Positions 8,098 through 24,728 of a DNA stretch of 64,000 bases are shown one piece after another. Under the pieces are notes generated by a model. It was not told where the DNA came from. It worked only from the letters and a program-made list of their open reading frames with translations, and did not search any database. A program made the translations under genes and the position numbers. Numbering within the stretch: the stretch's first letter is position 1; every line of letters starts with the position of its first letter. Origin of the DNA: Roseburia faecis (GTDB lineage Bacteria; Bacillota; Clostridia; Lachnospirales; Lachnospiraceae). The DNA is taken from assembly GCF_001406815.1 (NCBI RefSeq), contig NZ_CVRR01000071.1:1-64000 (forward strand), in the 5' to 3' direction.

Positions 8098-8826
8098 ATG
8101 AAAATTGCAATATGTGATGATGAAAAACATTACTGCAAACAGATACAGGAATGTGTGGAAATATATTTGGACAAGCATCATATATACGGGAAAACAGAAA
8201 TTTTTATGGATGGAAATGCTTTGTTAGAAAAAGGTATGCTGGCGGAATTTGATGCTTTGTTTCTAGATGTGGAATTTGGTGGAAAAGCGCAGGGAATGAA
8301 AATTGCAAGAGAGGTGCATCAGAGAAATGCAATGCTTCCGATTGTATTTGTGTCGGCATTTATTAAATATTCCGTAGAAGGATATCGCGTAAATGCGCTA
8401 CGTTATCTTTTGAAAAATGCAAAAGATTTGCAGAAAGAAATAGAAGAAAGCATGGATACCGTTCTTTCCGTGTATACGCAGAGACAAAAGAAAAAAACAT
8501 TTCGTTTTCGGGGGGAGACCGTAACGCTTTTACTGGATCAGATTATGTATATTGAAAGCAAAGCTCATCAGCTGTTTTTTTATTTGTGCGATGATACCTG
8601 TCGATGTATGGGAAAACGGACACTTGATGAAATGCAGAGAGAACTGACGGAGGATGAAGGAAGATTTTTGCGTATCCATAAAAGTTTTTTGGTGAATATG
8701 AACGACATCAGCACGCTCAAACGTTATCAGGTTCAGTTATTTTCGGGAAAACAGCTGCCGATTCCGCGAGAGCGTTATGCGGTGGTGGAAATGCAGTATG
8801 AGGAGTGGAAAAACAGAAATGATTGA
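8098..8826 (+). CDS. AgrA-like LytTR response regulator
   Basis: A 242-residue two-component regulator. The receiver domain (about 1-120) has the acidic pair D7-D8, phospho-acceptor D57 in ALFLDVEFGG and the switch lysine region near ALRYLLKN. A LytTR DNA-binding domain (about 135-238) follows, with the typical block GRFLRIHKSFLVNMNDI. In agr systems this protein is phosphorylated by AgrC and activates the agrD/agrB promoter and target genes. GGAGG lies 9 nt before the ATG. The gene overlaps the kinase start by 8 nt (ATGATTGA), so the pair is translationally coupled. Confidence 0.9.
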   Translation: MKIAICDDEKHYCKQIQECVEIYLDKHHIYGKTEIFMDGNALLEKGMLAEFDALFLDVEFGGKAQGMKIAREVHQRNAMLPIVFVSAFIKYSVEGYRVNALRYLLKNAKDLQKEIEESMDTVLSVYTQRQKKKTFRFRGETVTLLLDQIMYIESKAHQLFFYLCDDTCRCMGKRTLDEMQRELTEDEGRFLRIHKSFLVNMNDISTLKRYQVQLFSGKQLPIPRERYAVVEMQYEEWKNRND

Positions 8827-9679
8827 TTTTGTGGAAAATCTGTTTTTTATTTTAATTGAGACGATATGTTGCTGTCTGTATTTTCAAACGTTTTCAAAAT
8901 TTCGGTTTACAAAGAAAATACAAATCTTGCAATTTATTGGGCTGACAGGGTGTATGACGGCGGTAATCTATCTTTTTGCAACAATTCCTTTTTGGAAAAT
9001 GCCAACAGTCTGGTTTTTATTTGCGGTATCGATGTATGGAATGTTTCAAATGAAATTTTTCGAAGCATTGGGAATGGGAGCCTTGTACTATGCCCTTCTT
9101 CTGGTTGTGGATGTATTGGCATATGCCTGTAATGACATTTTGCAATTTCGTATGGGAGGGGAAACAAAAGTGTATGGGTGGAAAGCATGGCTGATTGCAT
9201 TGCTTGGGAAAATGTTCTTATTTATAATTATTCTTTTTGTAAGACGAATATTCGGAAAATCGGCAGTAGAAACACTCTCGAAGAGAGAATGGATAAAGTT
9301 TCTGGTATTTCCGATATTCACCATTTTTATGATCACATGGATGCTGGTGGTCGTTCAGAGTTCACAGGCGGGACCTGGAAAAATCCCTATAGTGTTGGCA
9401 TTTTCACTGGTAGGACTCAATGTTTTTATTTATGGATTGCTCTATGATATCCTTCAGAAAGAAGTCAGGACAAGAGAATATATGGTGTCCATGGCGAAAG
9501 CAGAGGGAAAAATACAATTATATCAAAAGCAGACGGCTTTTATACATGATTACCAGAATCAGATGCAGTGTGTCAGAACATTGCTGATGAAAAAAATTAC
9601 AAGGAGGCAGAGCAGTATTTGGAGCAGATGTGTAATGTGGGTGCGGATGTATGGAATGTTATTGATACGAATCATATGA
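8819..9679 (+). CDS. AgrC-like sensor kinase, N-terminal part (frameshifted gene)
   Basis: The first half of a broken kinase gene. The start at 8819 overlaps the regulator stop. Residues 1-about 205 form some six membrane segments, the peptide-sensing domain of AgrC-like kinases. A linker helix and the phospho-acceptor H243 in FIHDYQNQM follow. After LLMKK the frame is lost: a run of seven A at 9590-9596 puts translation into a spurious tail that stops at 9679. With one more A, or a -1 slip, the reading continues as KNYKEAEQYLEQM into the downstream frame, which fits the family. It could be a sequencing error, a phase-variable tract, programmed frameshifting or true inactivation. Confidence 0.8.
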   Translation: MIDFVENLFFILIETICCCLYFQTFSKFRFTKKIQILQFIGLTGCMTAVIYLFATIPFWKMPTVWFLFAVSMYGMFQMKFFEALGMGALYYALLLVVDVLAYACNDILQFRMGGETKVYGWKAWLIALLGKMFLFIIILFVRRIFGKSAVETLSKREWIKFLVFPIFTIFMITWMLVVVQSSQAGPGKIPIVLAFSLVGLNVFIYGLLYDILQKEVRTREYMVSMAKAEGKIQLYQKQTAFIHDYQNQMQCVRTLLMKKITRRQSSIWSRCVMWVRMYGMLLIRII

Positions 9680-10068
9680 TTGTAAATGCGGTTCTCAACG
9701 CAAAATATCAGGAAGCACAGGAAAGTGGAATTGGAGTTACGATAAAGATTAATGATTTATCTGGCTGGAGGATGGCTTACAATGATGTGACGATATTGCT
9801 TGCAAATTTGCTTGATAATGCAATTGAAGCCTGCAAATTATGCGAAGACAAAAAGCATATCTGGTTTAAATGTGTTCAGGAATCGGGAAAAATTATTTTA
9901 TCCGTAAAAAATACATATTGCGAAATGAATAGGAAAAAGAAAGAGGGACTACACGGAATAGGATTAAAAAATGTAGAACATGTGATCACATCTTATGGTG
10001 GAAATTACAGTATAAAAAAAATACAGGGAAAATTTATTGTGACTATTTTATTCTGGATGGAAGAATAG
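9568..10068 (+). CDS. AgrC-like kinase, C-terminal GHKL ATPase part
   Basis: The second half of the same kinase in the -1 frame, open from the GTG at 9568; the true junction is near 9596. It carries the end of the dimerisation helix (KNYKEAEQYLEQM), the N box NLLDNAIEACKL and the glycine-rich G box GLHGIGLKNVEHV of the HATPase_c_5/GHKL type found in AgrC, ComD and related peptide receptors. No ribosome site fits an independent start, so on its own it is unlikely to be a separate gene. It ends at 10068, just before a strong terminator. Confidence 0.8.
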   Translation: MCQNIADEKNYKEAEQYLEQMCNVGADVWNVIDTNHMIVNAVLNAKYQEAQESGIGVTIKINDLSGWRMAYNDVTILLANLLDNAIEACKLCEDKKHIWFKCVQESGKIILSVKNTYCEMNRKKKEGLHGIGLKNVEHVITSYGGNYSIKKIQGKFIVTILFWMEE

Positions 10069-10083
10069 AGATTCAAGCAGCTG

Positions 10084-10124
10084 AAAAGAGAACTTTTACA
10101 GATATTATGTAAGGGTTCTCTTTT
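10084..10124 (+). terminator. Intrinsic terminator between agrC and agrD
   Basis: AAAAGAGAAC and further paired bases against GTAAGGGTTCTCTTTT, ending in TTTTTT. It separates the agrA-agrC transcript from the agrD transcript. Confidence 0.85.
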
Positions 10125-10180
10125 TTGTTGTGATAAATGGTCGAATTTTGTACCAGTAATGCTGTTTTTTGTTCATAGGC

Positions 10181-10207
10181 TTGCTTGGAGAAAATTATTC
10201 TTATAAT
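10181..10207 (+). promoter_or_regulatory. Candidate agrD operon promoter
   Basis: Perfect -10 TATAAT (10202-10207) with a weak -35 TTGCTT (10181-10186) at a short 15-nt spacing. A good -10 with a poor -35 is what an AgrA-activated promoter would show. AATTTTGTACCAGTA at 10144-10158 is an inverted near-copy (13 of 15) of sequence at 8006-8020 upstream of agrA and could be a regulator site. Confidence 0.45.
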
Positions 10208-10268
10208 GTAAAAATGGAGGTAGAATATAAAGTTTAAATAATAGTTTAGAAAGGAAGTGAAAAATAAA

Positions 10269-10403
10269 ATGTTGAAGCTGTCAGAAAAAACATTAAAAGT
10301 GCTTTGGAAAATTGCTACAAGAGAAGTGGATAAGCAGAAATTATCATGGCCGCCACTTTGTGCGGGAATTTATCATCAACCTAAAAGACCAAAGAAAAAA
10401 TAA
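10269..10403 (+). CDS. AgrD-like cyclic autoinducer peptide precursor
   Basis: A 44-residue small gene. The N-terminal part (MLKLSEKTLKVLWKIATRE) is an amphipathic helix, as in AgrD leaders. It is followed by WPPLCAGIYHQPKRPKKK, which contains a single Cys (C31) five residues before the HQPKxP motif typical of cyclic lactone/thiolactone autoinducer precursors in Clostridia. In known systems AgrB cuts after the ring segment and closes a thiolactone through the Cys. Here CAGIY or CAGIYH would be the likely ring, with WPP or longer as tail. AAGGAAGTG lies 11 nt upstream of the ATG. It sits 20 nt before the large secreted protein gene and between kinase and AgrB genes. Confidence 0.8.
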   Translation: MLKLSEKTLKVLWKIATREVDKQKLSWPPLCAGIYHQPKRPKKK

Positions 10404-10423
10404 AAAGATAAGGAGTAAAGTTT

Positions 10424-13400
10424 ATGAAAATAAAATGGAAACGAGCAGTGAGCATTATACTTGTAATGACACTTATGGTAACTTTCGCCCAATGGAAGGT
10501 TTACGCGGATGAAGAAAAAGAAACGACAGAGATAGTTGAAAATAATTTGGAAGTTGTATATCAGGAGAAAGAATATAAGATAATCATTAGTTTGAAAGAA
10601 CATTGGGATAGTGGATATAATGCTAATGTAAAAATTGAAAATATAGGTGAGGAAACAATTGAAAACTGGTATTTGCAGTGGGTGTATGAAGAAGATATTA
10701 CAAATATCTGGAATGCTGAAGTGAAGTCACATCAAGATGCAAACTATATAATTAAAAATGTTACATGGAATCAGGATATTGAATCAGGAAAATCAATTGA
10801 ATTTGGTTTTAGTGGAAATAAAAGTTTTACAGGCTTTCCAAAAGAATGTAAACTGGTTGGCGATAGCTCGGAAGTGAAAAAAGATGATTATACAATTCAA
10901 TATCAGTTGGATAGTGATTGGGGAGATGGCTTTACAGGGAGAGTTTTAATTACAAACAATACAGAGCAGACACTAGAAGATTGGGTATTGGAAATGGATT
11001 TTGCGCGTCAAATTACAAATATTTGGGATGGGAAAATCAAATTACATGAAGAAAATCATTATATAATTCAAAATGCTGGATATAATAGTAATATAATGGC
11101 GGGGCAAACTATTTCATTTGGATTTAATGGAATAAATGGAAAAAAGGAAATGGAGCCGGAAGCATATCATTTGTATTCATATAATGATGAAGCTGAACAA
11201 TATAAGACGATTCATTTTGAACTTAATATTGATCCGGATGGAGTTACGAATATACCAGAGGATCAAATTGTGGAAACAGGTAAATATATGCAGGAACCAG
11301 AACAAAATCCACAAAAAGATGGATATGTTTTTTTGGGATGGAGTACAGATGTAAATGGAGATGAATATTTTATTCCGGATGAAACACCTATTGTAAAAGA
11401 TTTAGTGCTTTATGCAGATTGGTTTAATTATATAGATGAAACAGATACAGATAAAGATGGTTTAAGTGATGAGTTAGAGAGAATATTAGAAACAGATCCA
11501 TTGAAAGAAGATACAGATGGAGATGGAATAAATGATAGAATAGAAATTGATCAGTTGCGAACAGATCCGACAATGTCGGATAGTGATCAAAATGGCATAG
11601 AAGATGGGGAAGAGGATAGTGATGAAGATGGTTTAAAAAATAAAGAGGAATTGGAGATTGGAACAGATCCGATGAATGAGGATACCGATGGGGATGGATT
11701 GAATGATTTTGAAGAAATAAATACATATGGGACAGATCCAGTGAATGAGGACTCTGATGGGGATGAAGTTTCAGATAAAAAAGAAATTGAAATAGGGACA
11801 GATCCACTGAAAAAAGAAGAAAGTTTTCATGTTACAGAACAAGCGGAAGGTGATGGAAAAGTGCAGGCATCTGTTACGATTGATTTAAATGGTGAACAGG
11901 TTGAAACACTTACGGTAAAACCAACCGGAACTGAATTCCTTTTTCCAAAAGAAATGCCTGGATACATTGGAAATGCATATGAATTTTCTGTAGATGGAAC
12001 GTTTGATTCTGCAAAGTTGTCTTTTACATTTGACGAGGAATTATTAAAAGATAAGGATTTTGACCCGATAATTTATTATTATAACGAAAACATAGGAATG
12101 GAGGAAATGCCAACATCCATTCATGGAAATACGGCGACAACCGAAACAACACATTTTTCAAAATATATTTTATTAAACAGGAAAGAGTATGAAAAATCAT
12201 TTACTTGGATTGATAGTTCTCCAATCGATGTGTATAATAATGCTGAAGTTGTTTTTGTTATGGATGATACAGGGAGCATGAAGACAAATGATAAATCTTT
12301 TAAACGTCTTTCAGCAGCAAAGAGTATGATAGAAAATCTACCGGATTCCTGTAAGATAGGTATAGTACGATTTAGTAATGAATCTAAGAAACTAACAAAG
12401 AAGCTTGTGACAAATAAAACAGAAGCCGAAAAATATCTTACTACCGATTATTTTTCTTCGAGTGGCAGTACAGAAATGTATAAAGCGGTAAAAAATACAT
12501 TTTCACTATATGAGTCAAGTGATATAAAAACACTTAAGATCATGATAGTGCTTACGGATAGTGCTTCAAAAAATTTAGAAGAGCATGATGTAACCGTACA
12601 GCAGGCAAAAGAAAAAGATATCCGAATATATACCATTGGGCTTGGAACTGCAACAAATTATTTTAAAAAATATCTAAAACCATTGGCTGAAGATACAGAT
12701 GGAGCATTTTATATGGCAACGGATGCTACGAAGATAAAGGATGTATTTGAAAAATGTAATCAAAGAATTGATTTACAGATGGATAGTGATGGAGATGGAT
12801 TATGTGATTATGCAGAAGATAATTTGACTTTGTTTAACGGGGTAAAAATAACAACGGATAGATACAAAGCTGATAGTGATGAGGATGGATTAAGCGATGG
12901 CGAAGAAATACTTGTAACAAGACCACAATATTGCGATAATGGGAAAAAAATGAGGCTTGTATTATTGGGGAAATCAAATCCATGTAGTAGTGATAGTGAT
13001 GGAGATGGACTGAATGATGGAAGAGTATCGTTTAAAAATGGAAATATTATTGCACCGAAAGATCCAGATCCTAATAATGCAAATGAACCGATGGGATTAT
13101 GGAATGCGCATATTGACCAACAGAAAGTAAGAGTAAGCAGAAAATATGAATTTGAACATGATTATTCAAAGAAACAGCTGCAAAAATATATAAATAATGG
13201 AATGAAGAAAGGAACCACCAAGAAGACGGTACACCAAATTGTCGAATGGGCATTGGATATGAGAAATACCGTAAACCAAAATGAAAAAAAGATTAAGTGC
13301 TTTGCAAAGTTTTTAAAAAGATTTACAAGTGGAAAGGAAGCAACGGAGGCGGGGGCAGCTATTTTAAATTTTGTAAAAGATACAGATGATGAGGCATATC

Positions 13401-13957
13401 ATTCCCAGGTAGAAACTTGGCAAAGAAGTTTTGGATATAATGTGTTTTATGATGAAGTATTCCGGATTGGAACAAAGATGAATGAAAAAGATTTTCCATT
13501 CAAAGTAGGAAATGAAGAGTATGCGCTTTGGATGTGGAAAGGGAATTACTGGAATTTGCATAGTGGAGCAGAAATAGGGTTGTACAAATATGATAGAACC
13601 CATGCTGGAACAAAACATTATGATGCCATTGATTTTGAAGTACCAATGCGTTTGAGTTTGTATCGATATTCTAACAATGGGAAGCAGATCGATACGATAT
13701 TTAACTGGTATCCATATGGTGGTCAATGGTGGATTACAGGATTTAGTGGAGATAATTCTCAATTCAGAAATACAAATTGTAATAACATGGCAGCTATTGG
13801 GTATGTTGATTTATCAAAACATATAGATATATATAAAGGGATTAGGAATGCTGGCAGAAATTATAAAGGGGATAGAAAGACCGCGAATAATAAGTATTTG
13901 ATTTTTGATGATAAAAATTATTTGATTTGGATATATTGGTACGAAGGAATTAAATAA
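10424..13957 (+). CDS. Large secreted CBM2-like / TSP3-like / VWA protein
   Basis: 1177 residues with a signal peptide (1-about 28). Domains in order: two CBM2-like modules (about 45-147 and 157-258; each has W, GY/GF, NW or DW, N-IW and the FGF motif near its end), an InlB/Flg_new-type repeat (about 264-333, ending LVLYADW), and Asp-rich thrombospondin-3-like calcium repeats (about 338-465, DTDGDGxND units). A VWA domain follows (about 608-785) with MIDAS D614-x-T-x-S618, then more calcium repeats (785-865). The conserved C-terminal region (about 1010-1177) has an LWMWKGNYWNLHSGAEIGLY block that resembles DUF4474. There is no sortase motif or membrane anchor. Its AT-rich codon use differs from the flanks. 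Role unknown: adhesin or contact-dependent effector are both plausible. Confidence 0.8.
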   Translation: MKIKWKRAVSIILVMTLMVTFAQWKVYADEEKETTEIVENNLEVVYQEKEYKIIISLKEHWDSGYNANVKIENIGEETIENWYLQWVYEEDITNIWNAEVKSHQDANYIIKNVTWNQDIESGKSIEFGFSGNKSFTGFPKECKLVGDSSEVKKDDYTIQYQLDSDWGDGFTGRVLITNNTEQTLEDWVLEMDFARQITNIWDGKIKLHEENHYIIQNAGYNSNIMAGQTISFGFNGINGKKEMEPEAYHLYSYNDEAEQYKTIHFELNIDPDGVTNIPEDQIVETGKYMQEPEQNPQKDGYVFLGWSTDVNGDEYFIPDETPIVKDLVLYADWFNYIDETDTDKDGLSDELERILETDPLKEDTDGDGINDRIEIDQLRTDPTMSDSDQNGIEDGEEDSDEDGLKNKEELEIGTDPMNEDTDGDGLNDFEEINTYGTDPVNEDSDGDEVSDKKEIEIGTDPLKKEESFHVTEQAEGDGKVQASVTIDLNGEQVETLTVKPTGTEFLFPKEMPGYIGNAYEFSVDGTFDSAKLSFTFDEELLKDKDFDPIIYYYNENIGMEEMPTSIHGNTATTETTHFSKYILLNRKEYEKSFTWIDSSPIDVYNNAEVVFVMDDTGSMKTNDKSFKRLSAAKSMIENLPDSCKIGIVRFSNESKKLTKKLVTNKTEAEKYLTTDYFSSSGSTEMYKAVKNTFSLYESSDIKTLKIMIVLTDSASKNLEEHDVTVQQAKEKDIRIYTIGLGTATNYFKKYLKPLAEDTDGAFYMATDATKIKDVFEKCNQRIDLQMDSDGDGLCDYAEDNLTLFNGVKITTDRYKADSDEDGLSDGEEILVTRPQYCDNGKKMRLVLLGKSNPCSSDSDGDGLNDGRVSFKNGNIIAPKDPDPNNANEPMGLWNAHIDQQKVRVSRKYEFEHDYSKKQLQKYINNGMKKGTTKKTVHQIVEWALDMRNTVNQNEKKIKCFAKFLKRFTSGKEATEAGAAILNFVKDTDDEAYHSQVETWQRSFGYNVFYDEVFRIGTKMNEKDFPFKVGNEEYALWMWKGNYWNLHSGAEIGLYKYDRTHAGTKHYDAIDFEVPMRLSLYRYSNNGKQIDTIFNWYPYGGQWWITGFSGDNSQFRNTNCNNMAAIGYVDLSKHIDIYKGIRNAGRNYKGDRKTANNKYLIFDDKNYLIWIYWYEGIK

Positions 13958-14039
13958 ATAATGCCCAAAAAACATTTATAATAATACTGGTAATGGAACT
14001 ATGTACTGCTCTGGATAATGGAAGGATGGTAGGAAAATG

Positions 14040-14591
14040 ATGAAAAAAAAAATGATCGTAAATGACATTTTATGTTTATTCAGTTGTTTTTTTTTGATGG
14101 GATGTAATGCAATTAAAGAAGATAATACAAAGGTATACGTTGATTCTTATAGCCAAACAGCTCTGCAACAGGCTGACATCATTATGGATGGCATTCAGTC
14201 AGAAAATTGCGAAGAAATAGCAGATATTTTTTGCACTTATATCAAAAAAAATCATCCGGAGCTGCAAACAGATATAAAAGCATGGATGAAATATATTGAT
14301 GGCAATATTATATCTTATGATCCGCCAACAACAGAAAGAGGATCGTTAAATACCGGGGAATCAGGAGTGGAAATGTTGGTTATGGAAGCTGATATTGATA
14401 ATGTGAAGACGGATACCGGAAAAACTTACTGCATAGGTATGGGGTCATATTCTGTATTTAAAAATCATTCAGATTGCGTAGGAGTGACAGATTTATTAAT
14501 TCGTGATTTGGATGCAGAAAAAGAAAACAAAGAGGATTCGCAAGTTAGAGTGGAATATGATGATATATGGACGATAGAATATGGAAAATGA
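14040..14591 (+). CDS. Lipoprotein, first of a tandem pair (DUF5104-like)
   Basis: A 183-residue lipoprotein: signal peptide with lipobox FLMGC (Cys22), then a small globular domain. It is paralogous to the next gene. Shared blocks are KKNHPELQTDIKAWM against KEKHPELENDIKKWM, IISY, DIDNVKTDTGKT against EIDNVKTDTGKT, and EGVTDLL-type near the end. I think it belongs to the DUF5104 lipoprotein family, from memory of the family pattern. It starts at the second of two adjacent ATGs, 6 nt after TAGGA. Position behind a large secreted multidomain protein makes a cell-surface partner or immunity role possible, but this is unproven. Confidence 0.7.
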   Translation: MKKKMIVNDILCLFSCFFLMGCNAIKEDNTKVYVDSYSQTALQQADIIMDGIQSENCEEIADIFCTYIKKNHPELQTDIKAWMKYIDGNIISYDPPTTERGSLNTGESGVEMLVMEADIDNVKTDTGKTYCIGMGSYSVFKNHSDCVGVTDLLIRDLDAEKENKEDSQVRVEYDDIWTIEYGK

Positions 14592-15168
14592 AATAAAGCG
14601 GTTAGAAAAAAATAGAAGTGTCACGATAGTAGTAATGCTGGTAATCATGCTGGCAATCGTATTGAGTGCATGCACAGTTTCGGCAGGTGGGGAACCGCAT
14701 GTAAAATCCAAAAGTGAAAAAGCAATTGAGCAGGCAAAAACAATACTACAGGGGATAAAATCCGGTGATGCAGAGAAAATAGCAGATCAGTTTAGTCCGA
14801 TTGCGAAAGAAAAACATCCGGAATTAGAAAATGATATCAAAAAATGGATGGGTTTTTTAGACGGAGAAATTATATCCTATGGTGAACCTGTTCGTGATTT
14901 TGGGGATGCAACATGGGATGAAGATGGATATATTATATGGGGAGGAAGTATAGAAATTGATAATGTAAAAACCGATACAGGGAAAACAGATGAGATTGTT
15001 TATGGGGTGTATGCTACAGTAAGGGATCATCCAGAATATGAAGGGGTGACAGATTTACTTGTAATTGATACCAAAAAACAAGAAAAGGCAAATATGGAAG
15101 ATAAAGACATAGATCTTTCTGATGCGCAGAAAAGCGTGGGCTATGATGATGTTTATTGGGAGTGGTAG
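14581..15168 (+). CDS. Lipoprotein, second of a tandem pair (DUF5104-like)
   Basis: A 195-residue lipoprotein with a longer N-terminal charged segment and lipobox VLSAC (Cys31). Its start overlaps the end of the first copy by 11 nt and lacks a clear ribosome site, so translation is probably coupled. Homology with the upstream gene runs across the mature domain, showing a gene duplication. The C-terminus is longer (KQEKANMEDKDIDLSDAQK before the common YDD). Function unknown; see the upstream copy. Confidence 0.7.
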   Translation: MENEIKRLEKNRSVTIVVMLVIMLAIVLSACTVSAGGEPHVKSKSEKAIEQAKTILQGIKSGDAEKIADQFSPIAKEKHPELENDIKKWMGFLDGEIISYGEPVRDFGDATWDEDGYIIWGGSIEIDNVKTDTGKTDEIVYGVYATVRDHPEYEGVTDLLVIDTKKQEKANMEDKDIDLSDAQKSVGYDDVYWEW

Positions 15169-15194
15169 ACAAAGGAACAGTAGGAGAAAAAGTT

Positions 15195-15431
15195 ATGGCG
15201 TTTGTGACAATGATTTTTGCATACATGGTAATAGCTGGAGTAATTGCAATGGTGATTGCCGGGACAATCAGCACGATAGGTCTTATTGTCTTGATTATAT
15301 CGTTGATTCGACGGCACAGGGCTAAAGTCCGGGGAGAAACGCCAAAAAAATTTGGTTTGATTACAGGATGGATTTTGTTTTTGCTGCCAATATTTGTAGT
15401 TATTAGTTTTATAGTCTATTGGTTTGTTTGA
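15195..15431 (+). CDS. Small two-span membrane protein
   Basis: 78 residues, two hydrophobic segments (about 2-37 and 57-77) joined by a basic loop RRHRAKVRGETPKKF. I start it at 15195 because AGGAG (15182-15186) lies 8 nt upstream; an earlier in-frame ATG at 15156 falls inside the preceding gene and lacks a site. It sits 26 nt after the lipoproteins and 26 nt before agrB. No family recognised. Confidence 0.6.
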   Translation: MAFVTMIFAYMVIAGVIAMVIAGTISTIGLIVLIISLIRRHRAKVRGETPKKFGLITGWILFLLPIFVVISFIVYWFV

Positions 15432-15457
15432 ATATTGAGTTGGTGGAAGTGGAGATA

Positions 15458-16033
15458 ATGTTAGATCAAATAATTAAAAATTGTCTGGATCAAATGCAGG
15501 AAAAAAATCTGATTATGGAAGACAACAGGGAATATTATCAGTATGCTATGGAACTATTGGTAGAAGAAAGTTTGACAGTTGGAACAATACTTGTGGTAAT
15601 TATATGTATGCAGGAATTTGTGAATGGGGTGATTTTTCTTATTTCATTTTTGGCTTTACGAAGAAGAACTGGTGGTTTTCATATGAAGACGTTTAAAGCA
15701 TGCTACGTGGCAACCATCGGGACATTTATAGGTGTTTTGCTTGTGAAAAATATTATGTATACATATTCAAAATTGTTGCTTGTTTTTACCTGTATAGCGG
15801 CTAGTTATCTTTTGATTGTAGGTACGATGAATCATCCTAATATAGATATGGATAAAATAGAATTGTTGGCAAGTAAAAAATGTGCCAGAATGGTATGTAT
15901 AATAGAATTGTTAATGATTATAGTTGGAATGCAAATTAGAAATTTTGAAGAAATTTCTATAATGATATCATTGGCAATTATATTATGCTCTGTTTCTATG
16001 AAACTTGCGCAGCTTGTGAGACAAAAAATATAA
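15458..16033 (+). CDS. AgrB-like peptide-processing membrane protease
   Basis: 191 residues, the usual AgrB length, mostly hydrophobic with about five membrane segments after a cytoplasmic N-terminal helix. The catalytic signature RRRTGGFHMKTFKAC carries H75 and C82, seven residues apart as in Staphylococcus aureus AgrB (H77/C84). AgrB cuts the AgrD C-terminal tail and forms the thiolactone ring. ATG 15458 is chosen for length; GGAG lies only 3 nt upstream, so initiation may be modest. In S. aureus agrB directly precedes agrD, whereas here it lies 5 kb downstream of agrD, behind four other genes. Confidence 0.88.
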   Translation: MLDQIIKNCLDQMQEKNLIMEDNREYYQYAMELLVEESLTVGTILVVIICMQEFVNGVIFLISFLALRRRTGGFHMKTFKACYVATIGTFIGVLLVKNIMYTYSKLLLVFTCIAASYLLIVGTMNHPNIDMDKIELLASKKCARMVCIIELLMIIVGMQIRNFEEISIMISLAIILCSVSMKLAQLVRQKI

Positions 16034-16046
16034 CATTGCGGAGAAA

Positions 16047-16089
16047 ATAATGGGAATTGTATTAACTAAGTTAGTGCGATTCCCATTAT
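16047..16089 (+). terminator. Stem-loop after agrB
   Basis: Perfect 11-bp inverted repeat ATAATGGGAAT / ATTCCCATTAT with a 21-nt loop. It lacks a following T run, so it may end transcription inefficiently or protect the 3' end of the mRNA. Confidence 0.5.
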
Positions 16090-16220
16090 CTGATAGTTTG
16101 TGAAAACTAAGGAATGCCGTGTATGGAATGAGAGAGCAACTAATTAACCGTGGTTAGAGCCGCATACTTGATTTATGGAAGTTTTAAAGCCTTTCTGTGG
16201 GAAATGATAGTACATCATCA

Positions 16221-16653
16221 TCAATAATAATTAACGGATACATTAATTGTTGTCTGGTCAAAAATTCCCTTTGTATTTAAAATGATTTTCTGTGTAGCAT
16301 CGTTAAGCAACAGATTTGTATCTTCCACACAGCGGTTTTCGACAGTATAGACATGTCTGCCGATATGGAACGGATCAAAGGTGCAGACAAAGATTACAAA
16401 ACTCTGTTTTAACTGTGTGTTCAATGTTGTAAACTGTATTGGAATCGTCCTCAACATAGACATCTAGTCGGATGCTTTTGGCATCGAGAGAAAGATTGAT
16501 CGTTTTCTGGTCTTGTGGGTACTCAATGCGCGAAATCTTAATATTCAGTATTGTTTCCCAAAACGGTTTGCAGTACTTTGGATTGCGCATGATAATGCCA
16601 AACATAAAATCATCACTAATGGTAAGAACTTCGAACTTTTTGCTCATATGCAT
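16221..16653 (-). pseudogene. Degraded Rpn-family PD-(D/E)XK nuclease/transposase
   Basis: The remnant of an Rpn-type gene on the minus strand. The N-terminal fragment (16653 to about 16400) has a normal start with AAGGAG upstream and reads DDFMFGIIMRNPKYCKPFWE, SIRLDVYVEDDSN and TVYNIE. The C-terminal fragment in another frame (about 16405-16221) reads SFVIFVCTFDPFHIGRH, VYTVENRCVEDT and IILNTKG. The part normally joining them, with the YYQ-type block, is missing, so the gene carries a deletion plus frameshift. Such genes mark mobile or recombined ground. It abuts the agr island. Confidence 0.8.
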
Positions 16654-16950
16654 CTTCTTCTCCTTTGTAGTGGTGGAGAGGAAAAGGTGTCATATAGAGG
16701 CTGTTTTTCTATCAGAATTGTTACATGGAAGTCTCCAGCTTTCAATATCTGAATAGTTACAAAACAATAATAAAATAACAACTGAATCTTTGTTCTGCAC
16801 GAAATTTCTCTCCAATATCTAATTAGTACACATGGAAAAATGGATGAAATATCCAATGAAATGCAGTCAAATATAAAAAGACTGCACATTCGATATGTGT
16901 AAAGAAAATATAGTATGTGGAAGGCATATATACAATAGGAAAATAGAACT
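16654..16950. other. Non-coding AT-rich stretch
   Basis: No convincing gene. Two similar 17-18-nt sequences occur 70 nt apart, CAATATCTGAATAGTTAC (16743) and CAATATCTAATTAGTAC (16813). They may be leftovers of the Rpn element. Confidence 0.4.
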
Positions 16951-16991
16951 AAAAACAGATAGCGGATGATAAATATCCGCTATCTGTTTTT
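16951..16991 (-). terminator. Intrinsic terminator of the patatin gene
   Basis: A 17-bp stem, AAAAACAGATAGCGGAT / ATCCGCTATCTGTTTTT, directly after the minus-strand stop codon. It gives a T run on both strands. Confidence 0.85.
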
Positions 16992-17843
16992 TTAGGAAAG
17001 AAATGTATGCAGTTCGTTCAGGCGTGCATCAAAGTCGGAAATCCCCAGATCATACAACTCCTGTTCTAACTTTTCATCACGCGCGTAGGTACTCATCTTT
17101 AATTCTTTCGAAGGTGCAAAGACAAGCGCTTTTCCAGCGGATTCCTGTTTTTTTACATCGGCAATATTCTGACGGTACATCAGATGCCGGTTGTCAAGTG
17201 CTGCAATTGTCTGCGGATATTTACGCAGGGCATGCCGGTAAATGTGCCGGAAGCCTTCCGGTTGCTTTACAAAGCTGCGCGGTTTGCTCAAGATCACGAC
17301 TACACGGTCGCATCCTTTTGCAAATGCGCGCATAATCGGAACAGAATCGGATAATCCGCCATCAAAATATGTCTGATCTTTAAAAGAAATCGGACGACAC
17401 ATCACAGGCAGGGCACAGCTTGCCATAATGGCACGGTAGTCATCCTGTTTCATATCGTCTTTGGTAAAATAAACGGGCTTTCCAGTTGCGGCATCTGTTG
17501 CCACGAGTTCAAACTCGGCCGGATTTTCCACGATGGCAGGATAATCGATCGGGTCAGCTCCATCGGAGTTGGTCAGTGTCTGATAAATATACTGAAGACC
17601 GAAAAACTGTCCGGTGCGCAGCAGATTTTTGACACCCATATAACCGGGCTCATGCAGATGGTCTACATAAAAACGAAGATTGCGCCCGCGTTGTCCGGCG
17701 AGATAGCTTGCTGTGTTTGCAGATCCGGCCGATACGCCGATGCAGTAATCGAATGTAATGTGTTCATCTAAAAAGCGGTCAAGAATGCCTGCGCTGTAGG
17801 CACATTTCATGCCGCCGCCTTCTACTACAAGTCCTGTCTTCAT
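16992..17843 (-). CDS. Patatin-like phospholipase
   Basis: A 283-residue lipid acyl hydrolase. It has the oxyanion loop VVEGGGMKCAYSAG at residues 6-19, nucleophile S38 in GVSAG, and the dyad aspartate in YFDGGLSDSVP near residue 175. The first ATG at 17876 is less likely than 17843, which follows AAGGAG. No signal peptide, so it is cytoplasmic or membrane-associated. Similar YjjU/RssA-type proteins are common in Firmicutes; the substrate is unknown. It stands alone between its own terminator and a 460-nt spacer. Confidence 0.88.
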   Translation of the reverse strand: MKTGLVVEGGGMKCAYSAGILDRFLDEHITFDYCIGVSAGSANTASYLAGQRGRNLRFYVDHLHEPGYMGVKNLLRTGQFFGLQYIYQTLTNSDGADPIDYPAIVENPAEFELVATDAATGKPVYFTKDDMKQDDYRAIMASCALPVMCRPISFKDQTYFDGGLSDSVPIMRAFAKGCDRVVVILSKPRSFVKQPEGFRHIYRHALRKYPQTIAALDNRHLMYRQNIADVKKQESAGKALVFAPSKELKMSTYARDEKLEQELYDLGISDFDARLNELHTFLS

Positions 17844-18086
17844 GTCTGGGATACTCCTTTTGCCTGAAATTAGCATTATTGTAGCACTTTTTTTCTTTTT
17901 GTCAAATTTTTAACAATATGTGTTTGTTTTTCTGCAACCGTTTCAGTAGTGCCGGGACATTTGAAAAAAAGTGATTGGCTGACAATTCCTTAGAATGGGG
18001 ACAGCCCGGAAGGCAGAGATATTGGATTTTTTGATATGAGATATGATTTGACGAATGGGGAGATTGAGGAAGGTATGGGATAATAT

Positions 18087-18170
18087 TTAAAAATGATAAT
18101 ATCCTTTTGTGAAGAAAGTTTCATAAAAGCTAAGAAAGTTTTCAATAAAGTTGTGGAATTTGTTTCTCAT
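18087..18170 (-). CDS. Possible 27-residue microprotein
   Basis: A minus-strand ORF reading MRNKFHNFIENFLSFYETFF then seven more residues, ending HF. It has AAAGGAG about 10 nt before the ATG and a perfect TATAAT on the same strand near 18212. It is rich in Phe, Tyr and Asn and could form an amphipathic helix. There is no homology argument, so this is speculative. Confidence 0.25.
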   Translation of the reverse strand: MRNKFHNFIENFLSFYETFFTKGYYHF

Positions 18171-18260
18171 GGAAGTTCATCTCCTTTCTGTTTACGTTGT
18201 CATTATAAAACACGAAAGGGGATATTACTTGCCAAAATAAAAAAATAAATGGACAAAAAT

Positions 18261-18297
18261 TGCAAAAAGCAGAGATTCCAATCCTCTGCTTTTTGCA
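18261..18297 (-). terminator. Intrinsic terminator of the AraC-type gene
   Basis: TGCAAAAAGCAGAG / CTCTGCTTTTTGCA, a perfect 14-bp stem just after the stop of the minus-strand regulator, followed by a T run on that strand. Confidence 0.85.
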
Positions 18298-18302
18298 TTT
18301 TT

Positions 18303-19157
18303 TTATATGTTTTTACGATATTCAGAAGGTGACAGCCCTTTTGTCTTTTGAAAAATCCGGCTGAAATACAGTGGATTATCATATCCGACAATTTGTGCGA
18401 TCTCATTGATATTATATTGTGTATTCTGAAGCAGTGCTTCGGCATTATATATTCTTTTTTGCAGAATGAATTGTTTTGGTGTGATTCCGGCATATAATCT
18501 GAAATTACGGATAAACCAACTGGCACTGACATGATTTTGTTCGGCATAGTCATCAATGCTGATTGGTTCATTGTAATGCTCACTGAAATAAGAAATTGCT
18601 TTGTCTATTTCCTCAGCAGCATGGGAGTTCACTGTGTTGACAGAAAATTTAAAGTGGCGCTGTAGTTTTATAAAAATTTGTCTTAAATACATTTCAAGCA
18701 TTTCAGAATAGCTATCCTGACACATTTGTAATTCTTTTATCATGGCACGGAAAAGATACTGATATTCCGAACCGGAACCACAGTGGAACACCCTTTTATC
18801 ATTTGTCAATCCATAGGAACGGAGCAGATTGGTGACATTGTTTCCTGTAAAATGAACCCAGTAAACCTCCGTCTGGTCGTTGGCATAGTATTCATATTTC
18901 TGGGGTTCTCTTGGGCGGTATAAAACCATATGACCAGCATGAACAATCGTTTCTTCCTCATCGTTGTCAAAATGAAAATGAGCTTTCCCGGCAGCAATAA
19001 AGATCAACTGAAAATCAACTCTGCCACGTGGTCTCCAGGTGGGAAGTTTAGGGTGCGTATATAACTTGTAAGTCCCACACATGGTTACGACAAGTGGCTT
19101 GGATTTATCTTTTCTGTCAATTGTTGAGTTATTCAGATATGCATTATTGGTATACAT
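18303..19157 (-). CDS. AraC-family regulator of the lactose module
   Basis: 284 residues: a cupin-type sensor domain (about 20-160; LIFIAAGKAHFHFDNDEE, GHMVLYRPREPQKYEY) and a C-terminal pair of helix-turn-helix motifs (about 185-284). The second ends in the AraC signature IAQIVGYDNPLYFSRIFQK and GLSPSEYRK. It is divergent from the GPH symporter and lacLM genes across a 359-nt spacer, so it most likely activates them in response to lactose or another galactoside. The ligand is inferred from context only. Confidence 0.88.
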   Translation of the reverse strand: MYTNNAYLNNSTIDRKDKSKPLVVTMCGTYKLYTHPKLPTWRPRGRVDFQLIFIAAGKAHFHFDNDEEETIVHAGHMVLYRPREPQKYEYYANDQTEVYWVHFTGNNVTNLLRSYGLTNDKRVFHCGSGSEYQYLFRAMIKELQMCQDSYSEMLEMYLRQIFIKLQRHFKFSVNTVNSHAAEEIDKAISYFSEHYNEPISIDDYAEQNHVSASWFIRNFRLYAGITPKQFILQKRIYNAEALLQNTQYNINEIAQIVGYDNPLYFSRIFQKTKGLSPSEYRKNI

Positions 19158-19516
19158 TTGAGACCCCCATATGATAATTGAAAATGTTCATGAAATAATA
19201 ATCTGAAATACATAAATTTATGTTTGGCTCATGATGCAATTTTATCATTTTATGCATGTCTTGTCTATTTGGATTTTAAACGTTTGAAATAATGGTATTT
19301 TTTGTATAAATTAACGTGCTGGAAAATGAAAGTCAATAAAAGTACATGTCAAAAATAACAAAAGAAAGGAATAAAGAAAATGGTTTTTGTTAATTATACT
19401 GTTTTGTGCATGTTTTGTGTAATTTATGATATGGTTTTTTGACATCAGTTTTTATATACTATCTATAACAAAGTTGTGGGAACAAAAATAAGGATCATCG
19501 AAAGGAGCAGTTTCAC
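19158..19516. promoter_or_regulatory. Divergent control region, AraC regulator / lactose operon
   Basis: A 359-nt AT-rich spacer between divergent genes. Before the symporter there is TTGACA (19439-19444) and TATAAC (19464-19469) at a long 19-nt spacing. That arrangement suits an activator-dependent promoter. AAAGGAG precedes the start at 19517. Confidence 0.5.
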
Positions 19517-20878
19517 ATGGAAGAAAAGAAATACCTGAAATGGTATAACAAGGTGGGGTATGGAACCGGAGATCTGGCAGGAAATGTCGTGTATGCATTT
19601 CTTTCCTCGTTTGTAATGTTGTATCTGACAAATACGGTAGGGTTAAATCCGGGAGTTGTCGGAACATTGATCATGGTATCAAAATTATTCGACGGTGTCA
19701 GTGATATGTTTTTTGGTACATTGATTGACAAAACAAAGAGCAGACTTGGAAAAGCAAGACCGTGGATGCTTTATGCATATATTGGCTGTGCAGTAACGCT
19801 TGTGGCGAACTTTGCAATACCGGAAAGTCTTGGAAAAACAGCACAGTATGCGTGGTTTTTTATTGCATATACTTTGCTGAATGCAGTATTTTTTACTGCA
19901 AACAATATTGCCTATGCATCACTGGTTACGTTTTGTACAAAAAATAGCAAAGAACGGGTAGAAATGGGGTCGTTCCGTTTTATTTTTGCGTTTTTAACAA
20001 GTCTGATCATTCAATCTATCACCGTTCAGTTTGTAAGAATGGCAGGCGGTGGAGCTGCTGCATGGAGAACCGTAGCAATCATATACGCAGTAATCGGACT
20101 GATTGTAAACACAATTTCCGTATTCTCAATCAAAGAACTTCCGGAGGAAGAATTAAAGGCAGGCAGAGAACAGACAGAAGAAAAATATGGTTTGATTGAA
20201 GCCGCAAAACTTTTATTTTCCAATAAATATTATCTTATGATTTGTGTTACTTATATTTGTCAGCAGATCTATTCGGCTATGTTAAATATGGGTATTTACT
20301 ATATGATTTATGTTTTGAAAAATGAAGATTTATATTCGGTCTTTTCCTGGGCAATTAATATCCCTGTCATCATTGCAATGTGTATTACACCTATGCTTGT
20401 GGAAAAGATGAAGGGATTATATCGAATGAATCTTGCAGGATACATTCTTGGAACAGCCGGACGTGTCGGTGTTATTTTTGCAGGCTATATGGGAAGTGTT
20501 CCGCTGATGCTTGCTTTTACCGCAATCGCAGCACTTGGAATGGCACCATGGCAGGGAGATATGGGAGCTGTTGTGGCAAGCTGTTCAGAATACACATACC
20601 TGACAAAACATAAACACATTGATGGAACCATGTATTCCTGTACATCCTTTGGAACCAAAATCGGGGGTGGAATCGGAGTTGCCCTCTGCGGATGGCTGCT
20701 TGATGCAAGCGGATTTGTCAAGGAAGCGGCCGTGCAGCCTGCATCCTGCATGAATATGCTTCACATTATGTATTTATGGATTCCAATGATCCTGTCATTA
20801 GTCATTACATTTATTATGTCAGAAATGAATGTGGAAGCAGCGAACCGGCGACTTAGAGAACAGATGGAGGAGTGTTGA
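19517..20878 (+). CDS. GPH-family sugar:cation symporter (LacS/MelB type)
   Basis: 453 residues, twelve predicted membrane segments. The N-terminal block YGTGDLAGNVVYAFLSSF and the loop DGVSDMFFGTLIDKTKSRLGKARPW are diagnostic of the glycoside-pentoside-hexuronide family. It lacks the C-terminal EIIA domain found in streptococcal LacS. It lies directly upstream of lacL and lacM, so lactose or a related galactoside taken up with H+ or Na+ is the likely substrate. The next gene starts 58 nt downstream. Confidence 0.88.
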   Translation: MEEKKYLKWYNKVGYGTGDLAGNVVYAFLSSFVMLYLTNTVGLNPGVVGTLIMVSKLFDGVSDMFFGTLIDKTKSRLGKARPWMLYAYIGCAVTLVANFAIPESLGKTAQYAWFFIAYTLLNAVFFTANNIAYASLVTFCTKNSKERVEMGSFRFIFAFLTSLIIQSITVQFVRMAGGGAAAWRTVAIIYAVIGLIVNTISVFSIKELPEEELKAGREQTEEKYGLIEAAKLLFSNKYYLMICVTYICQQIYSAMLNMGIYYMIYVLKNEDLYSVFSWAINIPVIIAMCITPMLVEKMKGLYRMNLAGYILGTAGRVGVIFAGYMGSVPLMLAFTAIAALGMAPWQGDMGAVVASCSEYTYLTKHKHIDGTMYSCTSFGTKIGGGIGVALCGWLLDASGFVKEAAVQPASCMNMLHIMYLWIPMILSLVITFIMSEMNVEAANRRLREQMEEC

Positions 20879-20936
20879 CGTGGAATATAGTGGAATGAAA
20901 GAAATTGTATGGGGTGTATGGAAAGAGAGGGAAAAT

Positions 20937-22838: not shown

Positions 22839-23769
22839 ATTAAGAGTGGTCTATGGTGACTATACACTTGGTGTACATGGGGAGGGATTTGATTATATTT
22901 TTTCTTATGCACAGGGTGGACTGGAATCTATCGTTAAAAATGGATATGAGTGGCTGTACCGTTGTCCAAAACCTACTTTCTGGAGAGCATTGACAGATAA
23001 TGACAGGGGAAGCAGGTTTCACATTAAAAGCGGAAGCTGGCTTTCCGCAGATATGTTCATTGACTGTAAGGGAATAAAGGTCATCATGGATGGCAAGGAG
23101 CAGACCCCATATGCCCCTGATAATAATAGCTATGGTGGTGATGTTTATGCGGATGAAATTGTCGTAACATACACATACGAGACCATAACCACTCCGGAGA
23201 CAACGGTTCTTGTAAGCTATACCGTTGATGTATCTGGAAAGATTCGCGTGGATGTACATTATCATGGGGTACAGGGACTTCCAGAATTACCTGTATTTGG
23301 AATGAGATTTATCATGCCAACACTGGCAGACAAATATTTATATAAGGGACTCTCCGGGGAAACATATCCTGACAGAAAAGCGGGGGCAAAAGAAGGAATC
23401 TATGAGATTGAAGACCTGAGTCTTACACAATATCTTGTTCCGCAGGAATGTGGTATGAGAATGGATACAGAGTGGCTTGAGATTACAAGACATACGGCTC
23501 TTGATAACAGCAGGACAGACAGTTCATCACAGATACTGCGCATTGAAAAGAATGGCGAAAAATTTGCATTTTCCTGTCTGCCTTATACAGCATCTGAGAT
23601 TGAAAATGCCCTTCACCACGAAGAACTACCACCGGCAAGAAGAACCGTTTTATGTGTATATGGTGCAGTAAGAGGTGTTGGAGGCATCGACAGCTGGGGA
23701 ACTGATGTGGAAGAGGGATATCGTATCAGTGCAGAAGATAATATAGATTATTCATTTACCATATGCTGA
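22822..23769 (+). CDS. lacM: Beta-galactosidase small subunit
   Basis: 315 residues, matching the Bgal_small_N / domain 5 region of LacZ (RVVYGDYTLGVHGEGFDYIFS at the start, WRALTDNDRG near residue 55, GAVRGVGGIDSWG near the end). It overlaps lacL by 17 nt with GAGG upstream, the same kind of overlap known for lacLM of lactic acid bacteria. It completes the active site of LacL and is inactive alone in known systems. Confidence 0.92.
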   Translation: MAYTDKLRVVYGDYTLGVHGEGFDYIFSYAQGGLESIVKNGYEWLYRCPKPTFWRALTDNDRGSRFHIKSGSWLSADMFIDCKGIKVIMDGKEQTPYAPDNNSYGGDVYADEIVVTYTYETITTPETTVLVSYTVDVSGKIRVDVHYHGVQGLPELPVFGMRFIMPTLADKYLYKGLSGETYPDRKAGAKEGIYEIEDLSLTQYLVPQECGMRMDTEWLEITRHTALDNSRTDSSSQILRIEKNGEKFAFSCLPYTASEIENALHHEELPPARRTVLCVYGAVRGVGGIDSWGTDVEEGYRISAEDNIDYSFTIC

Positions 23770-23816
23770 TTGTGGTTGGAGAAACAGGGAGTATAAATAA
23801 AAGGAGTTGCTTGTAA

Positions 23817-24605: not shown

Positions 24606-24649
24606 AGCGATGTAGAAAAAGTTGTGGTGTTTCCTGAGAAAGAGAAAAC

Positions 24650-24678
24650 TTGTCATAACAGCCGAAAATAGATATAAT
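24650..24678 (+). promoter_or_regulatory. Sigma-A promoter of dnaE
   Basis: TTGTCA (24650-24655), 17-nt spacer, TATAAT (24673-24678), 50 nt before the dnaE start. Confidence 0.75.
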
Positions 24679-24728
24679 AGTTACACATGTGGGATACCAC
24701 AATGAACGAAAAAGGTGAGGAAACAATC

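What the first reader, a model, noticed from the sequence alone, without database searches (positions are those of the whole stretch)
8098..16033. Agr-type quorum-sensing island with cargo genes between agrD and agrB
All four agr parts are visible: LytTR regulator, six-span kinase, AgrD-like peptide and AgrB with the His-x6-Cys pair. In known agr loci agrB and agrD are adjacent. Here a 3.5-kb secreted multidomain protein, two lipoproteins and a small membrane protein separate them, all in the same direction. The block is visibly more AT-rich than the dnaE or IleS genes and sits beside a broken mobile-type gene. This suggests a transferred module in which cell density controls a surface or secreted factor in the same transcript.
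Basis: partly seen in the sequence, partly recalled or inferred. Interest (0 to 1): 0.75.

Follow-up and report, generated by a model that had tools for sequence, protein, structure and literature searches.

The report
Quorum-linked secreted toxin with immunity lipoproteins
A gut-type bacterium carries what looks like a swappable secreted antibacterial toxin with two protective lipoproteins, packed between the signal-peptide gene and the signal-export gene of a cell-density sensing system whose sensor gene is broken in this genome.

Summary
Two corrections: the kinase frame is broken in an A-tract near 9590, and a strong terminator-like hairpin separates agrAC from agrD-cargo-agrB.

The big protein ends in DUF4474 and both lipoproteins are DUF5104. 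In 75 related loci, 80 of 100 DUF4474 ORFs are followed within 400 bases by DUF5104. DUF4474 also caps RHS/WXG100 proteins and occurs as C-terminal fragments beside DUF5104 arrays of up to 11 copies. The CBM2/TSP3/VWA scaffold carries other C-termini elsewhere, including DUF3289, a validated toxin. So this is most likely a polymorphic toxin with NTF2-fold lipoprotein immunity. No paper in the held library contains DUF4474 or DUF5104.

The agr link is real but optional: AgrB was seen in 3 of 41 scaffold loci. In one (G258) the same TTTCTGCAA direct repeat precedes agrB and the toxin, and nowhere else in that genome. The window lacks that repeat. Separation of agrD from agrB is not unique even in this genome. 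Verdict: new variant of known kinds; quorum control in this genome is unproven and perhaps off.

The parts
8098..8826 (+). agrA-like response regulator (receiver + LytTR)
   Evidence: Pfam LytTR 3.6e-13, Response_reg 7.1e-10
8819..9679 (+). agrC-like kinase, membrane half (frame ends early; start codon by inspection)
   Evidence: Matches residues 1-269 of intact 434-439-aa agr kinases; ORF list
9590..9596 (+). Run of A at which the kinase reading frame is broken
   Evidence: Sequence; two ORFs in different frames overlap here
9568..10068 (+). agrC-like kinase, catalytic half (GHKL) in another frame
   Evidence: HATPase_c_5 1.8e-21; matches residues 263-435 of intact kinases
10084..10124 (+). 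Terminator-like hairpin between agrAC and agrD
   Evidence: Arms 17 nt, 88% complementary; -22 kcal/mol, z -7.25, 0 of 200 shuffles as stable, T run follows
10143..10174 (+). Possible degenerate direct repeat (period 21) where relatives have TTTCTGCAA pairs
   Evidence: 8 of 11 match, but 76 of 500 shuffles do as well: inconclusive
10203..10208 (+). TATAAT -10-like element before agrD
   Evidence: Sequence; position parallels relatives by eye; not in the scan list, not tested
10257..10403 (+). agrD, signal precursor, ..WPPLCAGIYHQPKRPKKK
   Evidence: TIGR04223 22.5 bits, cut-off 19; 57% identical to AgrD of the first C33 locus
10424..13957 (+). Secreted polymorphic toxin candidate: N-terminal hydrophobic signal, 2 CBM_2, List_Bact_rpt, TSP3, VWA, C-terminal DUF4474
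   Evidence: Pfam; single hydrophobic segment 8-26; survey
13361..13909 (+). DUF4474 domain, the proposed toxic part
   Evidence: PF14751 1.5e-13, residues 980-1162; model pLDDT 87
14037..14591 (+). Immunity lipoprotein candidate 1 (DUF5104)
   Evidence: PF17117 1.4e-13; lipobox LMGC; NTF2-like model
14581..15168 (+). Immunity lipoprotein candidate 2 (DUF5104), 40% identical to the first
   Evidence: PF17117 8.8e-10; identity; lipobox LSAC
15156..15431 (+). 91-aa membrane protein of unknown role
   Evidence: Hydrophobic segments; no family above cut-off; phmmer against ORFs of L073-L153 gave one weak hit, E 0.0095
15458..16033 (+). agrB, peptide protease/exporter (ATG start; a TTG at 15419 is also in frame)
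   Evidence: PF04647 6.5e-28; HMKTFKAC

Best explanation
The block is an accessory island between glgP and dnaE that holds a secreted polymorphic toxin operon built into an agr locus. Proposed working: a Sec-exported 1177-aa protein uses its CBM2/TSP3/VWA scaffold to bind surfaces outside the cell and presents a C-terminal DUF4474 domain that harms the envelope of competing bacteria; two DUF5104 lipoproteins, held on the outer face of the producer's membrane, neutralise it (toxin and immunity: inferred from gene neighbourhood, domain shuffling and fold). AgrD, first gene of the same operon, is matured by AgrB, last gene of the operon, so signal, weapon, immunity and exporter would rise together when AgrA is phosphorylated (inferred from gene order and homologous loci). 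In this genome AgrC is frame-broken, so the circuit is predicted to be off, or driven by basal transcription or another kinase, unless the break is a reversible slip in the A-tract or a sequence error (not decidable here).
For: A DUF5104 ORF lies within 400 bases downstream on the same strand for 80 of 100 DUF4474 ORFs; 68 of 75 loci hold DUF5104. Of 43 DUF4474 proteins scanned, 14 carry RHS repeats, 15 TSP3, 13 VWA, 8 DUF6531, 3 WXG100. L037: WXG100-DUF6531-RHS-Rhs core-DUF4474, then a DUF5104 lipoprotein. DUF4474 C-terminal fragments with DUF5104 in arrays, and 11 tandem DUF5104 in L119. 112 of 134 DUF5104 ORFs have a strict lipobox. The DUF5104 model matches NTF2-like 4r1k, E 4.5e-10, also by sequence, 3.6e-21. 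The scaffold carries other C-termini: DUF3289 three times (one genome), Lipase_3 once; 26 of 41 scaffold proteins show no DUF4474. DUF3289 is toxic and neutralised by immunity proteins (PMC11148199, PMC12135965, passages). agr with scaffold toxins: window, L081, L186. In G258 the repeat TTTCTGCAA-N10-13-TTTCTGCAA occurs twice, before agrB and before the toxin; control pattern 0.
Against: No toxicity was measured. DUF4474 has a branch that does not look like a toxin: short proteins beside a metallophosphatase in 20 of 22 loci, with DUF5104 in only 1 of 22. The DUF4474 model matches no solved fold, so the toxic act is unknown. AgrB was not seen in 38 of 41 scaffold loci (10 of the 41 have under 1.5 kb upstream in hand), nor beside the closest relative of the window toxin in G036. 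The window has no copy of the repeat, and its best pair is not significant (76 of 500 shuffles). The kinase is broken.
Confidence: 0.66

Rival explanations
1. The large protein is a plant-fibre or surface adhesin, or an enzyme, and the DUF5104 lipoproteins are its accessory binding proteins; nothing is a toxin.
For: CBM_2, TSP3 and VWA domains are often adhesive (established knowledge; domains); DUF4474 also exists in short proteins beside a metallophosphatase that look like housekeeping genes.
Against: DUF4474-DUF5104 is found as a unit on RHS/WXG100 proteins and as C-terminal fragments with DUF5104 arrays, and the scaffold also carries DUF3289, a validated toxin.
Confidence: 0.2
2. A toxin/immunity cassette landed by chance between agrD and agrB of an agr locus that had already decayed; there is no functional link, and the toxin is expressed from another promoter.
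For: Broken kinase; the same toxin/immunity set in G036 stands without agr; AgrB in only 3 of 41 scaffold loci; no copy of the repeat element in the window.
Against: AgrB and AgrD frames are intact and tightly spaced with the cargo; two other loci couple agr to the same scaffold (L081, L186); in L186 the toxin has its own copy of the agr repeat.
Confidence: 0.3
3. The operon acts on the animal host, as a colonisation factor, not on bacteria.
For: agr systems often control host-directed factors in pathogens (established knowledge); VWA and CBM-like domains could bind host glycans; many relatives are titled as animal-gut metagenomes.
Against: Dedicated neighbouring immunity-type lipoproteins, and the RHS and DUF3289 links, point to bacterial targets.
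Confidence: 0.07

Closest known systems
agr locus of Clostridioides difficile R20291 (agrACDB, agr2)
   Same: Same gene order A-C-D-B; LytTR regulator, kinase, AgrD, AgrB (PMC3754575, passages).
   Different: There D and B follow each other and the authors suggest one transcript; here 5 kb of toxin/immunity genes lie between D and B, a terminator-like hairpin follows agrC, and the kinase is broken.
RR-HK-AgrB-AgrD loci with AgrD of the PPxC..HQPKRP class (first C33 locus of this genome, G016, G033, G052, G258, G090, G337; G329 similar, its end not printed)
   Same: Same AgrD class, nearest AgrB (35-37%) and nearest intact kinases; hairpin after the kinase in L148-L151 by eye.
   Different: B-D order; TTTCTGCAA direct repeats near agr and cargo in most of them, absent from the window; mostly other cargo.
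L186 (G258:C20), agr plus scaffold-DUF3289 toxin
   Same: agr directly beside a VWA/TSP3 scaffold toxin in the same direction.
   Different: Toxin end is DUF3289; the following 178-aa ORF matches no Pfam family; B-D order; the toxin has its own repeat and hairpin.
RHS and WXG100/LXG polymorphic toxins
   Same: Conserved delivery part, variable C-terminal toxin, adjacent immunity gene, immunity arrays (PMC3482391 and PMC10765036, passages). Involvement of Agr in T7SSb control in S. aureus is in print (PMC10765036, passage).
   Different: The window protein has a Sec-type signal with CBM2/TSP3/VWA in place of RHS or LXG; thrombospondin, von Willebrand, vWA and cellulose-binding do not occur in the held part (300,000 of 357,715 characters) of PMC3482391.
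Imm-NTF2 and Imm65 immunity proteins
   Same: NTF2 fold; lipoprotein immunity (PMC3482391, passages).
   Different: DUF5104 combines both and pairs with DUF4474; membership of those families was not tested.

Membership tests
agr quorum-sensing system | AgrB protease with conserved His and Cys | tested here: met
   PF04647 97.8 bits; HMKTFKAC
agr quorum-sensing system | AgrD precursor | tested here: met
   TIGR04223 22.5 bits, cut-off 19
agr quorum-sensing system | LytTR response regulator | tested here: met
   PF04397 and PF00072; only 50.9 bits against the AgrA equivalog cut-off of 400
agr quorum-sensing system | Intact polytopic AgrC kinase | tested here: not met
   Two frames, break at 9590-9596; hence 'agr locus with a broken kinase', not a complete agr system
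agr quorum-sensing system | agrB and agrD adjacent or overlapping | tested here: not met
   5.05 kb apart; the feature is common, not universal: 21 of 29 locus entries
agr quorum-sensing system | Regulator-binding repeats before the signal operon | tested here: inconclusive
   At most 1 of 500 shuffles in 5 of 6 relatives, 427 of 500 in the sixth (L152); window 76 of 500
agr quorum-sensing system | Density-dependent induction by a secreted cyclic peptide | not testable with these tools
   Needs culture
Polymorphic toxin system | C-terminal domain swaps between unrelated delivery parts | tested here: met
   DUF4474 on RHS and on TSP3/VWA proteins; scaffold with DUF3289, Lipase_3 and unidentified C-termini
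Polymorphic toxin system | Immunity gene directly downstream | tested here: met
   80 of 100 ORFs; window gap 79 bases. That the neighbour is an immunity gene is inferred
Polymorphic toxin system | Orphan toxin fragments and immunity arrays | tested here: met
   L119, L127, L130, L134, L135, L146; in the window only two immunity copies
Polymorphic toxin system | Toxicity neutralised by the immunity protein | not testable with these tools
   Shown for DUF3289 by others, not for DUF4474
Imm-NTF2 immunity family | NTF2 fold | tested here: met
   4r1k, E 4.5e-10, TM 0.70/0.79
Imm-NTF2 immunity family | Family sequence motifs (W, W, W) | not tested
   Named in PMC3482391; DUF5104 is filed only as NTF2-like

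The most novel reading that the evidence does not exclude
DUF4474 is a new antibacterial toxin domain with no solved fold relative that acts outside the cytoplasmic membrane, DUF5104 its NTF2-fold lipoprotein immunity, and the Sec-exported CBM2/TSP3/VWA protein a new polymorphic delivery scaffold that Lachnospiraceae have more than once placed under agr control, so that signal, weapon, immunity and signal exporter form one self-amplifying transcript whose kinase may switch on and off by slippage in an A-tract.
Probability: 0.3. Interest if true: 0.8.

Novelty: new variant of a known kind. Interest (0 to 1): 0.6.

Why it matters
It proposes a function, toxin and immunity, for two Pfam domains of unknown function that no paper in the held library contains (whole-word searches), and points to a Sec-exported polymorphic toxin scaffold in gut Firmicutes that would need no dedicated secretion machine. 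It also links agr signalling to such toxins through a concrete DNA element that can be tested in a strain with an intact kinase, which would make density-dependent warfare among gut commensals directly testable.

Tried and rejected
Viral contigs gave no relative of the window's DUF4474 region. Fold search of the DUF4474 model against PDB gave nothing with E below 0.14; against BFVD one hit at 2.7e-4 with TM 0.20, taken as meaningless. A profile search of solved structures with DUF4474 gave one hit at E 0.84. The recalled staphylococcal-type AgrA motif gave no pair in any agr promoter region looked at. The window repeat pair was tested by shuffling and is not significant; it is not claimed as a binding site. 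A programmed frameshift in the kinase was considered and not favoured: a plain run of A without a recognised slippery arrangement (judgement from sequence); strain-level comparison was impossible with one genome per species. 'Cargo between D and B is unique' was rejected after looking at other AgrB loci of the same genome. AT-richness alone was not used as proof of transfer: the related toxin in L036 has 44% GC. One search stopped with an error after printing the table that is used; one search repeated the failed part.

Selections before counts. The 75 loci are the distinct loci among the best 80 of 82 matches; two of them (L074, L126) are the same contigs as the G036 and G046 loci that seeded the profiles. 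The 100 DUF4474 ORFs (profile E below 1e-5) include fragments, and 3 lie near a contig end. Of 51 DUF4474 ORFs of 300 aa or more, 42 plus the window protein were scanned by Pfam; 9 were left out to stay within 50,000 residues. Of the 41 scaffold proteins, 31 have 1.5 kb or more upstream; L183 and L184 end at a contig end and some others are short, so not all C-termini are complete; loci were gathered partly by DUF4474 and partly by scaffold, so the proportions are not population frequencies. Of the strong scaffold hits regions were fetched; weaker VWA-only hits were not. Of 10 regions fetched around glgP, 9 were analysed; L168, 1 kb, was not. Of 20 genomes with the repeat (37 matches in 397 genomes), G000 and G258 were known and 9 more were fetched in 13 regions: in 7 of these 9 a regulator and kinase pair lay in the fetched region of at least one match, in G137 none, in G072 only a regulator-like hit, and the second G177 match had none; the other 9 genomes were not looked at. 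Paper listings were capped: 20 of 140, 20 of 91, 15 of 23, 12 of 61; some searches listed all (8, 4, 9).


Full report
What is there. The ORF list and Pfam/NCBIfam scans confirm a LytTR response regulator at 8098-8826, a kinase, an AgrD precursor at 10257-10403, a 1177-aa secreted protein at 10424-13957, two DUF5104 lipoproteins, a 91-aa membrane protein and AgrB ending at 16033, all on the + strand. Gaps from agrD to agrB are 20, 79, -11, -13 and 26 bases, so these genes look co-transcribed. AgrD reads ..WPPLCAGIYHQPKRPKKK and is 57% identical to an AgrD that directly follows an AgrB elsewhere in the same genome.

Two corrections. The kinase frame is broken at a run of A at 9590-9596: the membrane half and the GHKL half lie in different frames. 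Searched apart, the halves match residues 1-269 and 263-435 of intact kinases of 434-439 aa in same-genus agr loci. A hairpin at 10084-10124 (-22 kcal/mol; none of 200 shuffles as stable; z -7.25) followed by a T run separates agrAC from agrD. Same-genus agr loci L148-L151 have a hairpin at the same place (read by eye).

The site. Six relatives with 85-90% identical glgP (G056, G018, G037, G005, G055, G010) have glgP followed by one gene of 260-272 aa and dnaE. Here 16.7 kb lie between glgP and dnaE, and that gene has no match in the window's stretch 15901-25000. More distant relatives have other genes at the site, for example a patatin-like gene in G035, G048 and G061. GC of the block is 31-38% against 45-48% for ileS, glgP and dnaE, though 18-20 kb in the window is also AT-rich. 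A truncated Rpn-type gene flanks the block. This supports an accessory island at a variable site.

The cargo. Within the genus the window's DUF5104 lipoprotein finds matches in 2 of 62 genomes, this one and G036. A scan of named genomes with the DUF4474 region gave 75 loci. With profiles built here, 80 of 100 DUF4474 ORFs have a DUF5104 ORF within 400 bases downstream on the same strand, and 68 of 75 loci hold a DUF5104 gene. 112 of 134 DUF5104 ORFs show a strict lipobox. DUF5104 reaches 11 copies in tandem (L119), and C-terminal DUF4474 fragments alternate with DUF5104 in L127, L130, L134, L135 and L146. Of 43 DUF4474 proteins scanned, 14 carry RHS repeats, 15 TSP3, 13 VWA, 8 DUF6531, 6 CBM_2 and 3 WXG100. 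In G046 a WXG100-DUF6531-RHS-core protein ends in DUF4474 and is followed by a DUF5104 lipoprotein. These are marks of polymorphic toxins as described in PMC3482391 and PMC10765036 (passages).

The scaffold is polymorphic too. Searching 250, 397 and 392 genomes with the middle of the window protein or its alignment and fetching the strong hits gave, with earlier loci, 41 distinct scaffold proteins, of which 15 show DUF4474 and 26 do not. Three of the latter, all in G258, end in DUF3289 and one in Lipase_3. DUF3289 has been shown to be a toxin, proposed colicin-M-like, neutralised by immunity proteins (PMC11148199; PMC12135965; passages). Several of the others are followed by a small ORF that looks exported or membrane-bound, sometimes duplicated (by eye), which is suggestive only.

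Structures. The DUF4474 model (pLDDT 87) has no solved relative, so its act is unknown. The DUF5104 model (pLDDT 92) matches the NTF2-like protein 4r1k (E 4.5e-10; by sequence 3.6e-21). NTF2-fold immunity proteins are known, and one lipoprotein immunity family, Imm65, was called exceptional (PMC3482391, passages). Lipoprotein immunity, and DUF3289 on the same scaffold, suggest a target outside the cytoplasmic membrane; this is inference.

The agr link. AgrB occurs in 3 of the 41 scaffold loci: the window, L081 (RR-HK-AgrB-AgrD-toxin-DUF5104-DUF5104; its AgrD scores 19.4 bits, just over the cut-off of 19) and L186 (RR-HK-AgrB-AgrD-DUF3289 toxin). It was not seen in the other 38, 10 of the 41 having under 1.5 kb upstream in hand, and not beside the closest relative of the window toxin in G036 (about 51% identical over its first 600 residues). 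In L186 the element TTTCTGCAA-N11/12-TTTCTGCAA stands before agrB and again, after a hairpin, before the toxin. In the whole G258 genome it occurs only at these two places; in this genome three times, all at C33 by an agr locus; of 8 genomes 5 have it, and the reversed control pattern has no match in any. Among 397 family genomes 20 have 37 matches, the control none; in 7 of 9 further genomes looked at, a regulator and kinase pair lies nearby. This makes it a likely binding element of this agr subfamily and puts the G258 toxin in its regulon. The window does not have the element. Its best period-21 pair is matched by 76 of 500 shuffles, while 5 of 6 relatives have at most 1 of 500 and the sixth, L152, 427 of 500. 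So quorum control of the window operon rests on gene order and homology.

Order of genes. Loci L148-L152 and the first C33 locus have AgrB followed by AgrD; other AgrB loci of the genus have AgrD first. C. difficile R20291 has agrA-C-D-B (PMC3754575, passages). The window is A-C-D-[cargo]-B. Separation of AgrD and AgrB is unusual but not unique: in the same genome the second C33 locus and the C5 locus also have them apart.

Against the reading. DUF4474 has a branch of short proteins next to a metallophosphatase (20 of 22 loci), with DUF5104 in only 1 of 22, so the domain alone does not prove a toxin. No toxicity or regulation was measured. The kinase break may be real decay, a switch, or a sequence error.

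Literature. No paper in the held library contains DUF4474 or DUF5104 as a whole word. Searches combining agr or quorum terms with toxin or Lachnospiraceae terms (several listings capped) showed no title or abstract start that describes an agr-controlled polymorphic toxin of this kind; one review notes Agr among the regulators of the S. aureus T7SSb (PMC10765036, passage). Full texts were not read beyond the passages cited.

Verdict. New variant of known kinds: a polymorphic toxin/immunity operon, probably of a new toxin family and scaffold, embedded in an agr locus with a broken kinase.

Noticed in passing
L297-L301 (G090:C48, G329:C4, G337:C10): agr loci with four to five copies of the TTTCTGCAA repeat over 12-21 kb, before clusters with an ABC-transporter-like protein of about 570 aa, a protein that looks subtilisin-like by eye, and paired proteins of about 320-370 and 470-530 aa; perhaps a peptide (bacteriocin-like) cluster under agr.
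   Followed up: partly
L014-L035: Short DUF4474 proteins next to a metallophosphatase (20 of 22) and often a LysM-type protein (12 of 22): a conserved, probably non-toxic branch of DUF4474.
   Followed up: partly
L119 (Mogibacterium pumilum) 8570-14970: Eleven tandem DUF5104 genes after one 1731-aa DUF4474 protein: a very long immunity array.
   Followed up: no
G000 (whole genome): Ten AgrB-family matches in one genome, several beside contig ends.
   Followed up: partly
L148-L152, L306, L307: agr loci followed by small proteins with leader-like starts; of those scanned only one (in L150) matched a family over cut-off, DUF6033. Apparently the usual cargo of this agr subfamily.
   Followed up: partly
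L153 1190-4359 and L076 3490-6657: A lactococcin-972-like small secreted protein (name recalled) followed by a large protein and an ABC-ATPase-like protein, next to an AgrD-AgrB pair in L153 and near a DUF4474 ORF in L076.
   Followed up: no
window 16047-16089: A long inverted repeat (ATAATGGGAAT ... ATTCCCATTAT) just after agrB without a T run; could be a terminator or a mobile-element end.
   Followed up: no
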